Source: Teredinibacter turnerae | GTDB taxonomy: Bacteria > Pseudomonadota > Gammaproteobacteria > Pseudomonadales > Cellvibrionaceae | Length of the DNA stretch: 64,000 bases | Assembly: GCF_037935975.1 (NCBI RefSeq) | Contig: NZ_CP149817.1 | Span: 4,154,001 to 4,218,000 of the forward strand | Direction of reading: 5' to 3' | Shown here: one piece after another, positions 49,329 through 53,336 of the stretch | Numbering within the stretch: position 1 is the first letter of the stretch | Layout: every line of letters starts with the position of its first letter | Made by a program: the position numbers and the translations under genes | Notes under the pieces: model-generated | What the model saw: the letters and a program-made list of their open reading frames with translations, nothing else | What the model was told of the DNA's origin: nothing | Databases searched by the model: none

Positions 49329-49913
49329 TTACGCCTTAGCTTTGGCCTTAGCCATACGCTTGCGCATCCAAACGAATACCACTAGAGCTGCACCCATCAT
49401 TGGCATAGAGGCAGGTAAAGGTACTGGCGACACATTGTCCAGACCTGATACGTGATCCACTTGGAACGGACCTTCGCCAAGCTGAAAACCTGATGACAAC
49501 TTTGACGTATCGAAAACCGCCCAATTACTAGCGCCGGTATTTTCGAACAATCCCCAGAAATTGGCATTCTTAACAATGTAGTAACCTGGCTCATTAGGCA
49601 TCAAAATGGCGTAAACATTTTCGACGTCGGTAGCAAGATATCCTACGCCAGCATTGGAGCTGTTGAGAGACAATTCCGTATCGCCGCCCATCAGAGAGTT
49701 GGACCAGAATTGTTCCGCGTCTGCACGAAAACCCCGGAAACCCTGACCGGCGATCAAGTCGCGAAACTCTCGTTTGCCAATCTCACCAACCAATTCATCC
49801 ACTGTGCCGACATCGGTTCCATCATAGTCACTGCTGTCGTCGGTAACGACGATCGCAGAGGCACTAACGGACCAGAGACACACCATCAGCAATCCCACAC
49901 ATTTCTTTAACAT
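49329..49913 (-). CDS. Exported protein with VPLPA/PEP-CTERM sorting signal
   Basis: This is a 194-residue protein with a signal peptide (1 to about 20, ending VSASA). Its C-terminus has the three parts of an exosortase sorting signal: VPLPAS (about residues 163-168), a hydrophobic stretch (MMGAALVVFVWM) and a basic tail (RKRMAKAKAKA). The middle is acidic and Ser/Asn-rich and resembles no family I know. Exosortase-sorted proteins are exported and often linked to exopolysaccharide or biofilm. No exosortase gene is in the window. The ATG at 49913 has AGGAG upstream. Confidence 0.78.
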   Translation of the reverse strand: MLKKCVGLLMVCLWSVSASAIVVTDDSSDYDGTDVGTVDELVGEIGKREFRDLIAGQGFRGFRADAEQFWSNSLMGGDTELSLNSSNAGVGYLATDVENVYAILMPNEPGYYIVKNANFWGLFENTGASNWAVFDTSKLSSGFQLGEGPFQVDHVSGLDNVSPVPLPASMPMMGAALVVFVWMRKRMAKAKAKA

Positions 49914-50064: not shown

Positions 50065-50505
50065 TCACATTTTTATGTCAACCTTACTGACGGATTTAGA
50101 CGCCAATTTTTCCATTTTTATAGGGAGTCTCGTAATCTTTACAAGCCTGACAACGTCCATAATGTATACGTAAGTTTCGACGCTTGTACGCTCATCAGCC
50201 ACCAGCACAAACGACGGAAATTCTTGCCGCTCGGCAATTAACCGATGTAAGCGCGCCTTTAGTCCTGCCAACTCGACCGCCTGTCCCTCCAAAGTGATGT
50301 TGTTTTGTGCGCCAACCCGCAAAACCACAGTTTTACTTGCTCGCCCAGCCGCAGAGTGCGGCAATGGGTCAACCGGTAATGTGCGCTCAGCAGCAAAGGA
50401 CGCGGTGACAATAAAGAAGATCAAAAGGATAAAAACCACATCCATCATAGGGTTAAGATCGATACCGTTCGCACAAACTTCATCGAGTGTCGATTTTTTT
50501 CTCAT
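50065..50505 (-). CDS. exbD: ExbD/TolR-family biopolymer transport protein
   Basis: This is a 146-residue inner-membrane protein with a single membrane segment (about residues 20-38). The segment contains LNPMMDVVFILLIFF, where Asp22 is the proton-pathway residue of ExbD/TolR. A periplasmic domain follows (about 40-146). ExbD works with ExbB and TonB to drive outer-membrane transport by the proton gradient. No exbB is next to it. It lies downstream of the tonB-like gene, beyond a terminator hairpin. The ATG at 50505 has CGGAGA upstream. The periplasmic tail ends in a basic segment (MEKLASKSVSKVDIKM). Confidence 0.88.
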   Translation of the reverse strand: MRKKSTLDEVCANGIDLNPMMDVVFILLIFFIVTASFAAERTLPVDPLPHSAAGRASKTVVLRVGAQNNITLEGQAVELAGLKARLHRLIAERQEFPSFVLVADERTSVETYVYIMDVVRLVKITRLPIKMEKLASKSVSKVDIKM

Positions 50506-50520
50506 AGCGTTTCTCCGTGG

Positions 50521-50543
50521 AAAAAAGCGCCCCTAAGGGGCGC
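50521..50543 (-). terminator. Intrinsic terminator between tonB and exbD
   Basis: GCGCCCC (50527-50533) and GGGGCGC (50537-50543) enclose a 3-base loop. On the minus strand it is followed by TTTTTT. It lies 27 bases past the tonB stop codon and only 22 bases before the exbD start, so exbD needs read-through or its own promoter. Confidence 0.85.
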
Positions 50544-50569
50544 ACAACGGCACTGCTGACTTGCAGAAT

Positions 50570-51208
50570 TTAGTTCTTCATCACAAAGGTGAGGCGGCTG
50601 CTCAGGCCGGGAAATGCAACCGGCTGCCCGTCGACAGTTTTCGGCTGATACTTCCAGCGCGCGACAGCGGCCAGCGCGGCATTCTCAAACATGCCATGTG
50701 GCAGGGACTCCAGGATGCGTATGTTTTCGGTTGTTCCTAACGCTGTAACATCAAAAATAACATCGACATAGCCCTCAGTGGCGTTGCGCAGTGCGCGCGC
50801 CGGATACACTGGCTGCGGCTGATACTGTGGAATTGGAAATCCAGCGCCGAACGCCACCTCGACAGGTCCAGTCGTACTTCGTATTGCCGTCGGCTTAATG
50901 GGTAAAGTCAACTTAACGTTTAGATGGGTGTCATCCGCTGGCTCCGGCATAGGCGGTGCTTCTTGCACCTCCAGCGGTTTAGGCAGGTCCTTTTTTATAA
51001 CAGTAACAAGCTTGGGCTCCTCCCACGTCACGTTGGGCGGATTGAAGGGTGGCGCGTCATCGATCGGCGAGTCCGCCATATGAATTAAACGCTCCATCAA
51101 TACCAGCAGTGCCAGTGTAACCAGCGCCGCAAGCCCCGTAGTCGCTACTGCTCGAACGAACTGATTTGCGCTGAATACAGCGTGGTTGGTTGTGAATATA
51201 GTGTTCAT
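50570..51208 (-). CDS. tonB: TonB-family energy transducer
   Basis: This is a 212-residue protein with one N-terminal membrane segment (about 24-42). A Pro/Glu-rich periplasmic linker follows (about 50-110, with EAPPMPEPADD). The C-terminal TonB domain (about 130-212) shows YPARALRNATEGYVDVIFDV and RWKYQPKTVDGQPV. This layout is that of TonB proteins which pull on outer-membrane receptors. It lies 55 bases downstream of the M56-TonB gene, and its ATG has GAGGAG upstream. The membrane segment lacks a clear SHLS-type histidine motif. Confidence 0.88.
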   Translation of the reverse strand: MNTIFTTNHAVFSANQFVRAVATTGLAALVTLALLVLMERLIHMADSPIDDAPPFNPPNVTWEEPKLVTVIKKDLPKPLEVQEAPPMPEPADDTHLNVKLTLPIKPTAIRSTTGPVEVAFGAGFPIPQYQPQPVYPARALRNATEGYVDVIFDVTALGTTENIRILESLPHGMFENAALAAVARWKYQPKTVDGQPVAFPGLSSRLTFVMKN

Positions 51209-51263
51209 GTTGACGCTCCTCTTTGGTGATTGACGTACAACAGTGCCGGTTAAACCTCATTAG

Positions 51264-52835
51264 TCAGCCTTCGAGGTTAAATACAAACGTTTCAGTGACG
51301 TTTTTAGTTATGACTTTTTCGCCGTTTAACTCCAACGGCAAAAACTGGAACTGGTTTATCGCGTTAAGTACCGCCTGGTCGAATACACCGGCAGGCTCTG
51401 CGTGCAACACTCTGGGGGACATAACCTCGCCCACAGGACTGACATCGAATTCAATAACCACACGACCGCTTATTCCATGGCGCAAGGCATACCTGGGGTA
51501 GTGCGGCGTTACCACAATATTGGGCAAGTAACCGCTCATCGCGATACCGGGCGCGTTAACCTCCGTCATTGGCGCCAACTCATCGGCAGAAACCCAGAGC
51601 CTGCCGGGAGTTTGTGCACGGCTCACCACAAGAAGTTCTTCGGTTATCGGGCGCGCAGGTGGCGGGCTAAACACAGGCAACTGCTGGGAAGTCGTCGGCT
51701 CCAGTGGATCCGAACCCCTGGGCTCAGGCGGATGCTCGAGCGCTAGCTGATGATTGAGCCAGTCCACCCGGCGGCGGTTATTGGCAAGCGGCGAGCTGCC
51801 TTCGACCAGTATCATCGGAACCACAACGGGCGATGGGTAAACAGCTAGCGGATCTTTAAAAGTGCCTGCAGGGGCCGTACCGAGATTGGCAAATGCGATA
51901 GGACCAACCAATGAAGAAACCAGAAGCGCTGCGGCCATACGCCAGAGAAACCCGGTGCGGCTCCGGTTTCGACAAGGTTCCAATACCAGCTTTATTCGCT
52001 CGAATAATTGCGAGCCATCGCTGTATGCCAATGCGAAAGAGGTGTGCTTCACATCAGCAGATATTGCCAATAAATCCTCTGCGTATTCAGCGCGACAATC
52101 GAAAAGCTCTGCGACCCGGTCATCGCATGCAATCTCCGCATACCAGCCAATACGTTTAGCGAAGATCCACACCAAAGGTACAAACCACAACAGTGCCGTA
52201 ATTTGCGCGACCAGGATTTTCACCGGCCAGTCGTTGCGCGCGATATGCGCATACTCGTGAGCTAACACCCGGCGAACCCGACTGGTCTCCCAGTCGCCTG
52301 CACTTACCGGAAGTAATACGGTAGGCCGCAGCCAGCCCAACACGAGTGGTGAGCTCACTACGCAGGTTACACGTACATCAATGCGGAACCTGGAGAAGCC
52401 GAACAGATCGTCGAGCCACATTTTTTGTTGGATTAAATCACCCCCGCTCGCATGATCTAGCGGCGTTGCGCCGTCCTTGATCCAATAAGCCTCGACAACA
52501 CCCAAAAATACATAGCTCAGCCGCCAGGTCACGCCCAGGCAATAGATCGCCAACCCACTGTAAAGTACGACTGGGGCAGCGCTCAAGCTACGCACATCTG
52601 TTGCCAGCAAGCCTTCCACTGCGTGCGGTAAAATCGGCAGATTAAGTGCGGGATAGGCCGCGCCAAGCGGTATAAGCGCCACCGATACCAGCAGCGTAGA
52701 GAGAAACCACCAATGAAACTGTGCCGCAGAGCGGAGCGAAGGTCGCGCCAATAGCGACATCACAATAACCAATATCAGCATCGGTTTAACAACCGTCACC
52801 AGTACCCAGAAACTAATATCAGTTATCGCTAGCAT
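51264..52835 (-). CDS. BlaR1-like M56 membrane metallopeptidase fused to a TonB C-terminal domain
   Basis: This is a 523-residue protein. Residues 1 to about 120 hold three or four membrane segments. The M56 zinc protease domain has HEYAH (193-197) and the third ligand Glu234 in AEIACDD, followed by a last membrane segment (about 297-316). In BlaR1 and MecR1 the part outside the membrane is a penicillin-binding sensor. Here residues 317-430 are a Pro-rich linker and 435-523 are a TonB C-terminal domain (YPRYALRHGISGRVVIEFDV). No SxxK or KTG motif is seen. It is coupled to the BlaI-like repressor by TGATG overlap. Likely role: a protease that inactivates the repressor when the TonB domain senses something in the periplasm. 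Confidence 0.88.
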   Translation of the reverse strand: MLAITDISFWVLVTVVKPMLILVIVMSLLARPSLRSAAQFHWWFLSTLLVSVALIPLGAAYPALNLPILPHAVEGLLATDVRSLSAAPVVLYSGLAIYCLGVTWRLSYVFLGVVEAYWIKDGATPLDHASGGDLIQQKMWLDDLFGFSRFRIDVRVTCVVSSPLVLGWLRPTVLLPVSAGDWETSRVRRVLAHEYAHIARNDWPVKILVAQITALLWFVPLVWIFAKRIGWYAEIACDDRVAELFDCRAEYAEDLLAISADVKHTSFALAYSDGSQLFERIKLVLEPCRNRSRTGFLWRMAAALLVSSLVGPIAFANLGTAPAGTFKDPLAVYPSPVVVPMILVEGSSPLANNRRRVDWLNHQLALEHPPEPRGSDPLEPTTSQQLPVFSPPPARPITEELLVVSRAQTPGRLWVSADELAPMTEVNAPGIAMSGYLPNIVVTPHYPRYALRHGISGRVVIEFDVSPVGEVMSPRVLHAEPAGVFDQAVLNAINQFQFLPLELNGEKVITKNVTETFVFNLEG

Positions 52836-53236
52836 CAGCGGGACTCCTTGTCCTTAAGCGCCTTCAAACGGGCGATATTTCTCTCCAGATCTTCAATCTC
52901 ACGGGCAGACAGCGCGTCGCCTTCCATGTCCAGCAGCGCCGATACGGCTTTGGCTGGCGAGCCCTTGAAAAACGTTTTAATCACTCGTCGAATCGCCGAC
53001 TCGCTGGCCTGCTGCTGCTCCAGCTTTGGAAAATAAATATACTTCGCCCCCTCCGTACGAAATCCCACCACCCCCTTTTCCAGCAGTCTGGCAATGAGTG
53101 CTCGCACTGCTGAATAGCTCGGAGGGTCTGGCAGATGAGCCAGCACATCCTGTGCGGAGGCCTCATTTAATTCGTAGAGAATATCCATAATCTGCTGCTC
53201 TCTACGACTCAACTTGTAGTGTGCAATAGGTGACAT
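52835..53236 (-). CDS. blaI: BlaI/MecI/CopY-family transcriptional repressor
   Basis: This is a 133-residue winged-helix repressor. The N-terminal DNA-binding domain (about 8-75) includes LSRREQQIMDILYELNEASAQDV in parts and the recognition helix SYSAVRALIARLLEKG. The C-terminal helices (about 80-130) are for dimerisation and hold the region cut in BlaI. The ATG at 53236 has GAGG upstream. Three TGCTA-N6-TAGCA dyads lie 20-100 bases upstream and are its probable operators, so the cluster is autoregulated. The family also includes copper-responsive CopY, but no metal-binding cysteine motif is seen at the C-terminus. Confidence 0.93.
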   Translation of the reverse strand: MSPIAHYKLSRREQQIMDILYELNEASAQDVLAHLPDPPSYSAVRALIARLLEKGVVGFRTEGAKYIYFPKLEQQQASESAIRRVIKTFFKGSPAKAVSALLDMEGDALSAREIEDLERNIARLKALKDKESR

Positions 53237-53256
53237 CGCATCCTCGTCTATTAACG

Positions 53257-53276
53257 GGTGCTATTTTTTTAGCACC
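53257..53276. promoter_or_regulatory. BlaI-type operator 1
   Basis: GGTGCTA (53257-53263) and TAGCACC (53270-53276) form a perfect 7-base dyad around six T residues. It is the closest of three dyads to the repressor gene, 20 bases before the start codon. It would block transcription when bound. Confidence 0.82.
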
Positions 53277-53277
53277 A

Positions 53278-53293
53278 TGCTACAAAATTAGCA
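53278..53293. promoter_or_regulatory. BlaI-type operator 2
   Basis: TGCTA (53278-53282) and TAGCA (53289-53293) flank CAAAAT. The centre is 19 bases from that of operator 1, just under two helical turns, which suits side-by-side binding of two dimers. Confidence 0.8.
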
Positions 53294-53320
53294 CCTGCGA
53301 TCCGAAGCCGCAAGCGTTAA

Positions 53321-53336
53321 TGCTAAATTTTTAGCA
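53321..53336. promoter_or_regulatory. BlaI-type operator 3
   Basis: TGCTA (53321-53325) and TAGCA (53332-53336) flank AATTTT. The centre is 43 bases (about four turns) from operator 2. Its distance from the others suggests cooperative or looped repression, with the promoter between operators 2 and 3. Confidence 0.78.

What the first reader, a model, noticed from the sequence alone, without database searches (positions are those of the whole stretch)
50065..53336. BlaI-controlled module joining an M56-TonB fusion, a TonB and an ExbD
A BlaI-like repressor (52835-53236) is coupled to a BlaR1-like protease (51264-52835), then TonB (50570-51208) and ExbD (50065-50505). The protease has HEYAH and Glu234, but its outer part is a TonB C-terminal domain instead of the beta-lactam-binding sensor. 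In BlaR1 a drug-bound sensor switches on cleavage of the repressor. Here the sensing part is a periplasm-facing TonB domain, so the trigger might be an outer-membrane receptor or mechanical pulling. There is no ExbB and no beta-lactamase or PBP gene, which sets it apart from classic bla/mec operons. The proposal is a proteolysis-switched TonB uptake or stress module.
Basis: partly seen in the sequence, partly recalled or inferred. Interest (0 to 1): 0.78.

Follow-up and report, generated by a model that had tools for sequence, protein, structure and literature searches.

The report
Protease-switched TonB supply operon
A shipworm-symbiont-type bacterium carries a repressor and a membrane protease built like the penicillin-sensing BlaI/BlaR1 pair, but with a TonB nutrient-uptake domain where the drug sensor would be and with a TonB gene as the thing it most likely switches on.

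Summary
BlaI, an M56 protease fused to a TonB C-terminal domain, TonB and ExbD lie intact in a row, with three perfect TGCTA-N6-TAGCA dyads before blaI. In the family (Teredinibacter and relatives), a TonB gene follows the protease in 27 of 28 inspected loci and BlaI precedes it in 27 of 28 (the other is cut by its contig end). Zinc-site residues are invariant in 28 of 28. A tandem operator overlies the predicted -10 element. The strict tandem occurs once in each of 25 of 97 genomes (own and relatives), always before BlaI, and in none of 368 other sampled class genomes, so the visible regulon is this operon. ExbD is genus-specific and mostly lies behind a terminator. The locus matches the published T. 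turnerae 'TonB1 cluster' (PMC10734418): there tonB1b restored iron-limited and cellulose growth, but tonB1a, the fusion, did not; its main text never mentions BlaR, BlaI or M56. Best reading: an autoregulated BlaI/BlaR1-type switch that sets TonB1b level, with the fused TonB domain as periplasmic input. Trigger unknown; receptor engagement is inferred. M56-TonB fusions are a known architecture (Chu et al. 2007, recalled) and also occur in Bacteroidota.

The parts
53321..53336 (.). upstream dyad TGCTA-N6-TAGCA (third operator)
53308..53313 (-). predicted -35 (TTGCGG), 17-bp spacer to -10
   Evidence: TTG at 16-18 bp in 25 of 27 tandem-operator loci, 6.7% at random positions; not picked by the consensus scan
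53285..53290 (-). predicted extended -10 (TGC TAATTT), inside operator 1
53278..53293 (.). operator 1 (perfect dyad, overlaps -10)
53259..53274 (.). operator 2 (perfect dyad, 19 bp start-to-start from operator 1)
52835..53236 (-). blaI-type repressor, 133 aa, Penicillinase_R
51264..52835 (-). M56-TonB fusion (apparent orthologue of published TonB1a), 523 aa; start overlaps blaI stop by 1 base
51987..52769 (-). M56 domain aa 23-283 (HEYAH 193-197, E234, D238, R280)
51273..51506 (-). TonB_C domain aa 444-521, predicted periplasmic
50570..51208 (-). tonB (apparent orthologue of published TonB1b), 212 aa
50549..50560 (-). conserved element in the tonB 3' untranslated region, shortly before the terminator
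50527..50543 (-). intrinsic terminator hairpin (7 G-C pairs, then T6) between tonB and exbD
50065..50505 (-). exbD, 146 aa; genus-specific neighbour, probably outside the core transcription unit

Best explanation
The core is a three-gene, self-regulated operon, blaI / M56-TonB / tonB. BlaI binds two adjacent dyads that cover the -10 element and the start region and holds the operon down. The fusion protein sits in the inner membrane like BlaR1: four helices, a zinc protease facing the cytoplasm, then a linker of about 118 residues and a TonB C-terminal domain in the periplasm. That TonB domain is the input and reads the state of the TonB system: most likely TonB boxes of receptors that lack enough TonB, otherwise free TonB itself. 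When it is engaged, the protease is released and cuts BlaI, and the operon makes more TonB1b, the working energy transducer (ExbB and ExbD can come from elsewhere). New TonB then competes with the sensor and closes the loop. Shown here: gene order, domains, intact active-site residues, a conserved tandem operator over a predicted promoter, and no strict tandem operator elsewhere. Shown by others in the apparent orthologue: TonB1b transduces energy, TonB1a did not in two assays, and the cluster is not clearly iron-regulated. Inferred: BlaI binding, BlaI cleavage, topology, TonB domain as sensor, ligand, feedback. The 0.6 is for the circuit with this kind of input; the receptor-box step alone I put at 0.3.
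For: Order kept in the family: a TonB gene follows the protease in 27 of 28 loci (not L066) and BlaI precedes it in 27 of 28 (L067 is cut by its contig end). H193, E194, H197, E234, D238 and R280 invariant in 28 of 28; in BlaR1 the HEXXH residues and the Asp246-Arg294 pair form the protease site (D238 as Asp246 from constant spacing, R280 as Arg294 inferred). The fold matches BlaR1 and TonB CTDs. Strict tandem operator once per genome in 25 of 97 genomes (own and relatives), 0 backward-control hits, all before the BlaI domain, and in 0 of 368 other genomes of a class sample; TTG at -35 distance in 25 of 27. Of 8 BlaI-M56 loci without TonB in the genus, 7 carry another operator, TACGA-N6-TCGTA, and L075 shows neither. 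The fused TonB domain departs from working TonBs: the E. coli W213 position is W in 0 of 26 fusions and 25 of 28 separate TonBs of the same loci (numbering recalled). T. turnerae quadruple tonB mutant rescued by tonB1b or tonB2, not by tonB1a or tonB3. The same three-gene order in a Barnesiella (Bacteroidota) record.
Against: No binding, cleavage or expression data for this pair. The published cluster showed no clear iron regulation, so iron-receptor demand is not an obvious trigger. [quoted passage not shown] Loss of the Trp in the fused domain could mean that it no longer binds TonB boxes. In L062, L064 and L065 the domain is so diverged that Pfam TonB_C does not match in the two tested (L062, L064), yet BlaI, operator and TonB gene remain, so the ligand need not be a TonB box. 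The S. aureus BlaI cut site (Asn101-Phe102) has no obvious equivalent here (alignment). The fused domain does not resemble its own operon's TonB more than other loci's (28% against 29%), so no co-variation supports competition. Four loci of the family sample depart from the pattern: L066 (no tandem operator, no TonB gene after it), L056 (operator with a mismatch), L064 and L065 (fused domain below threshold).
Confidence: 0.6

Rival explanations
1. Same switch, other input: the fused domain reads something outside the TonB system, such as peptidoglycan or the state of the envelope, so the circuit is an envelope sensor that happens to raise TonB.
For: The domain loses W213 in 26 of 26 fusions counted and is not seen by Pfam in two tested loci that keep the rest of the operon; no clear iron regulation in print; linker varies from 54 to 181 residues.
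Against: Most fusions keep the TonB_C core (P164 and G186 in 26 of 26, F180 in 25, Y163 in 24 of 26) and the model superposes on TonB from receptor complexes at 1.1 A.
Confidence: 0.25
2. The fusion is simply a second energy transducer with a BlaR1-like anchor, the protease being a relic.
For: It has a TonB domain and a long linker.
Against: tonB1a failed to rescue iron-limited or cellulose growth though its transcript was confirmed; zinc-site residues invariant in 28 of 28; BlaI and its operator conserved.
Confidence: 0.06
3. The protease acts on TonB1b or other membrane proteins rather than on BlaI, BlaI only keeping the operon low.
For: BlaI's staphylococcal cut site is not obviously conserved; the substrate is untested.
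Against: A BlaI gene stands next to M56 in 35 of 36 loci, 15 of 16 and 28 of 29, as expected of protease and substrate; BlaR1 cuts BlaI directly.
Confidence: 0.07
4. A beta-lactam or cell-wall antibiotic sensor, as in bla/mec operons.
For: Family membership of BlaI and M56 only.
Against: No penicillin-binding domain in the fusion and no beta-lactamase or PBP family among the seven window proteins scanned; the next gene is TonB.
Confidence: 0.02

Closest known systems
T. turnerae TonB1 cluster (Naka and Haygood 2023, PMC10734418; abstract, sections 12, 13, 14, 16 and part 1 of 17 read, plus passages)
   Same: Two adjacent tonB genes, the first with an N-terminal extension of four predicted helices, then exbD, no exbB; the relative L042 (G003) has all of this and is 89% identical in the fusion
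   Different: Its main text never mentions BlaR, BlaI, penicillinase or M56 (0 occurrences; supplements not seen). The repressor, operator and circuit are added here. That G003 is strain T7901 is recalled from its genome size
BlaI-BlaR1 / MecI-MecR1
   Same: BlaI-type repressor overlapping an M56 four-helix zinc protease with an extracytoplasmic C-terminal domain; dyad operators at the repressor's promoter
   Different: TonB_C in place of the penicillin-binding sensor; a TonB gene as output; different operator (staphylococcal one recalled)
TonB proteins with a MecR1-like N-terminal extension (Chu, Peacock and Vogel 2007; not held, abstract recalled; cited as reference 54 in PMC10734418)
   Same: Same fusion architecture
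   Different: Function unknown according to PMC10734418; I recall no treatment of repressor, operator or circuit there
TonB-dependent cell-surface signalling (receptor, anti-sigma factor, ECF sigma; passages of PMC7593790)
   Same: Would couple receptor state to transcription through proteolysis

Membership tests
BlaI/BlaR1 (M56) proteolytic switch | Repressor of the Penicillinase_R family next to an M56 protease | tested here: met
   27 of 28 family loci
BlaI/BlaR1 (M56) proteolytic switch | Intact gluzincin site (HEXXH + Glu, Asp) and BlaR1 fold | tested here: met
BlaI/BlaR1 (M56) proteolytic switch | Dyad operators at the repressor's own promoter | tested here: met
   (sequence only, binding not tested)
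BlaI/BlaR1 (M56) proteolytic switch | Protease cleaves the repressor | not testable with these tools
   needs an in vitro cleavage assay
beta-lactam sensor BlaR1/MecR1 proper | C-terminal class-D-like penicillin-binding sensor | tested here: not met
   TonB_C instead; curated BlaR1 model 51 bits against cut-off 400
TonB energy transducer (the fusion) | TonB C-terminal fold | tested here: met
TonB energy transducer (the fusion) | Single N-terminal helix that couples to ExbBD | tested here: not met
   multi-helix M56 anchor
TonB energy transducer (the fusion) | Energises receptors in vivo | not testable with these tools
   published complementation by the apparent orthologue was negative
MecR1-TonB fusion class (Chu et al. 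2007) | MecR1-like extension of about 290 aa plus TonB_C in one chain | tested here: met
   class definition recalled

The most novel reading that the evidence does not exclude
A TonB domain used as a sensor rather than a motor part: an inner-membrane protease samples TonB boxes of loaded outer-membrane receptors, and when true TonB is short it destroys the repressor of the tonB operon, giving homeostatic control of TonB supply by direct competition, in at least two phyla.
Probability: 0.3. Interest if true: 0.82.

Novelty: new variant of a known kind. Interest (0 to 1): 0.55.

Why it matters
TonB links the inner membrane to many outer-membrane receptors (38 annotated in T. turnerae T7901). 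How a cell matches TonB supply to demand is, as far as I know, open, above all in bacteria that eat polysaccharides through such receptors. This locus offers a testable circuit whose only visible target is tonB. It also gives a reading of a published puzzle: why T. turnerae TonB1a does not work as a TonB, and why its TonB1 cluster is not clearly iron-regulated. The same fusion in Bacteroidota suggests a wider use of BlaR1-type proteases with TonB input.

Tried and rejected
Wider regulon: the exact dyad occurs 4 times in this genome, 3 at the operon and 1 inside a MATE-like gene; its backward control also occurs 4 times. The AT-spacer dyad occurs 72 times in 28 genomes, 62 at the operon (recounted); of the 10 others 6 lie inside ORFs and 4 between them. 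Neighbours of those 4 that I scanned: DUF47, a weakly matched P-loop protein, PilZ, a trypsin/FG-GAP protein, arginyl-tRNA synthetase, and one ORF without a match. The backward control occurs 33 times. Weaker sites cannot be excluded.

ExbD as a core part: rejected for the family, kept as a genus-level neighbour.

Own-operon match of the two TonB domains: none (28% own against 29% other; 3878 of 5000 permutations as high). 26 of 28 loci entered this count; L064 and L065 dropped out because their fused domain fell below threshold.

The consensus promoter scan did not pick the blaI promoter; it rests on the fixed distance of TTG to the operator in 25 of 27 loci. Of 30 loci given, L056, L066 and L067 had no tandem match (L056 has a version with a mismatch; L067 begins inside the operon). 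L044 and L045 match only the looser pattern, not the strict one. In L050, L051 and L059 the mechanical ORF start lies before the operator, but the BlaI domain starts after it.

First genome-contig scan found nothing; the second gave 5 loci: L088 and L089 repeat family loci, L091 shows the three-gene order, L090 and L092 have M56 without TonB. Class sample: M56 over cut-off in 16 of 185 genomes. I inspected 13 of the loci returned (L093-L105); 3 (L094, L096, L098) had TonB fused; L106-L121, below cut-off, were left out. Bacteroidota: I inspected L122-L150; 10 of 29 had TonB_C, some two or three in series. They are not all independent: L123 is the same locus as L091, L127 as L092, and L143 and L145 look alike; L151-L156, below cut-off, were left out. 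For nearly all of these the next gene lay outside the fetched stretch.

Literature on the fusion: searches showed no functional study of it other than PMC10734418, judged from listings. Passages only were seen of PMC7593790, PMC9834060, PMC10470040 (lists an M56 and a BlaI gene) and PMC12864828 (not relevant). The 2007 TonB survey was not held.
Full report
What is there. The four ORFs exist as described, on the minus strand, intact. Their Pfam domains are Penicillinase_R, Peptidase_M56 plus TonB_C in one chain, TonB_C, and ExbD. blaI and the fusion overlap by one base; tonB follows after 55 bases and exbD after a further 64. Three exact TGCTA-N6-TAGCA dyads lie before blaI.

The genome and its relatives. 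The window lies in a single-contig 5.35-Mb genome. One relative of the family, G037, was matched to a named record, Teredinibacter sp. ISS155 (same 229,377-base contig), and another, G053, to Marinagarivorans sp. UBA5868 (same 40,628-base contig). G003 and G038 have the sizes I recall for T. turnerae T7901 and Saccharophagus degradans 2-40; the tools did not name them. The family name Cellvibrionaceae is taken from the abstract of PMC11632262 as listed.

Conservation. Of 97 genomes (own and relatives) searched with the fusion, 76 have some match, many of them plain TonB. I fetched 27 further loci around the better M56 matches; not all 61 genomes of the family were inspected. With the window this makes 28 loci. 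All 8 genomes of the genus in the set have BlaI, the fusion and TonB. A TonB gene follows on the same strand in 27 of 28 (not L066). BlaI is found in 27 of 28 (L067 is cut by its contig end; a BlaI with the same operator stands at another contig end of that genome, L077). A TonB_C domain was detected in the protease in 26 of 28 (not L064, L065). ExbD follows in 7 of 8 genus loci and in none of the other 20. The neighbours of the unit differ between loci, for instance an OmpA-like and an RsmJ-like gene in one group and an S-adenosylmethionine-synthetase-like gene in another (names by eye), so the three genes hold together while the surroundings change.

The two TonB domains differ. At the E. 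coli W213 position (numbering recalled) the fusions have F, S or Y (0 W of 26) while the separate TonBs of the same loci have W in 25 of 28; at R212 the fusions have R in 1 of 26 and the TonBs R or K in 27 of 28. L064 and L065 fell below threshold and are not in that count, and Pfam does not see TonB_C in L062 or L064, although operator, BlaI and TonB gene are all kept there. This fits a domain relieved of energy transduction. It also weakens the idea that its ligand must be a TonB box.

The operator. In 27 of 30 loci (including L076 and L077) a tandem of two dyads, not all perfect, precedes blaI, and 25 of those 27 have TTG 16-18 bases before a TA inside the first dyad, against 6.7% of random positions. 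The strict tandem, 18-19 bases start to start, was found once in each of 25 of 97 genomes, never with the backward control, in all 25 before the BlaI domain, and in none of 368 other genomes of a class sample. Of 8 BlaI-M56 loci without TonB in the genus, 7, including this genome's own, carry TACGA-N6-TCGTA instead; L075 shows neither. So the visible regulon is this operon alone.

Where the operon ends. A 7-pair G-C hairpin followed by six T lies between tonB and exbD. A like hairpin stands after tonB in six other genus loci, five of them with exbD behind it (L042-L045, L047) and one without exbD (L046); in L048 exbD overlaps tonB by four bases and no hairpin was found. The core unit is therefore most likely blaI-fusion-tonB. 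Sixteen MotA/TolQ/ExbB-family matches elsewhere in the genome could supply partners.

What was known. Naka and Haygood (PMC10734418; abstract, sections 12, 13, 14, 16 and part 1 of 17 read, plus passages) describe in T. turnerae T7901 a 'TonB1 cluster' with tonB1a, tonB1b and exbD1 but no exbB, TonB1a having an N-terminal extension with four helices. The match to this locus is by these features; I saw no locus tags for it. [quoted passage not shown] The genes were not clearly iron-regulated. The words BlaR, BlaI, penicillinase and M56 do not occur in the main text. The paper cites Chu et al. 2007 for such TonBs and calls their function unknown; I recall that abstract as naming a MecR1-like extension in nine TonB proteins, but did not see it. 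The architecture is thus published, its function unknown.

Spread. A Barnesiella (Bacteroidota) record has the same order, BlaI, M56-TonB, TonB. In a sample from that phylum 10 of 29 inspected M56 loci carry TonB_C, a few of the loci being duplicates. In the class sample 3 of 13 inspected loci do.

Verdict. The most likely mechanism is a BlaI/BlaR1-type switch with a TonB domain as periplasmic input and TonB1b as output. Repression, cleavage and sensing are inferred. The trigger is the open point: shortage of TonB at loaded receptors is my preferred reading, at about 0.3. The lack of iron regulation and the drift of the fused domain speak against a simple form of it.

Noticed in passing
window 50527-50560; same place in L042-L047: A conserved stretch (GTCAGCAGTGCC-like) shortly before the terminator in the tonB 3' untranslated region, possibly part of a small RNA or of the terminator. 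In 6 genus genomes the motif occurs 19 times, 6 of them at tonB; the 13 others exceed the backward control (4), so it is not specific to tonB.
   Followed up: partly
L010 7550-9782 (genome 0.86 Mb) and L069-L074: A second BlaI-M56 pair without a TonB domain in genus genomes, with its own operator TACGA-N6-TCGTA; in L070 one BlaI is followed by two M56 proteins.
   Followed up: partly
window 49329-49913: A small protein with a PEP-CTERM/VPLPA-type tail (matches just under the curated cut-offs) sits downstream of exbD; among the loci searched its relatives were found only in L042 and L043.
   Followed up: no
L132, L141, L142, L144: M56 proteins of the Bacteroidota sample next to BlaI with two or three TonB C-terminal domains in series.
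   Followed up: no
L064, L065, L062: Fusions whose C-terminal domain has drifted (below Pfam's TonB_C in L062 and L064; L065 below my own threshold) while operator, BlaI and the TonB gene stay; a natural series for asking what the domain senses.
   Followed up: partly
L066: The one inspected family locus without a TonB gene after the fusion and without the tandem operator; an exbD-exbD-tonB group lies about 3 kb away on the other strand.
   Followed up: no
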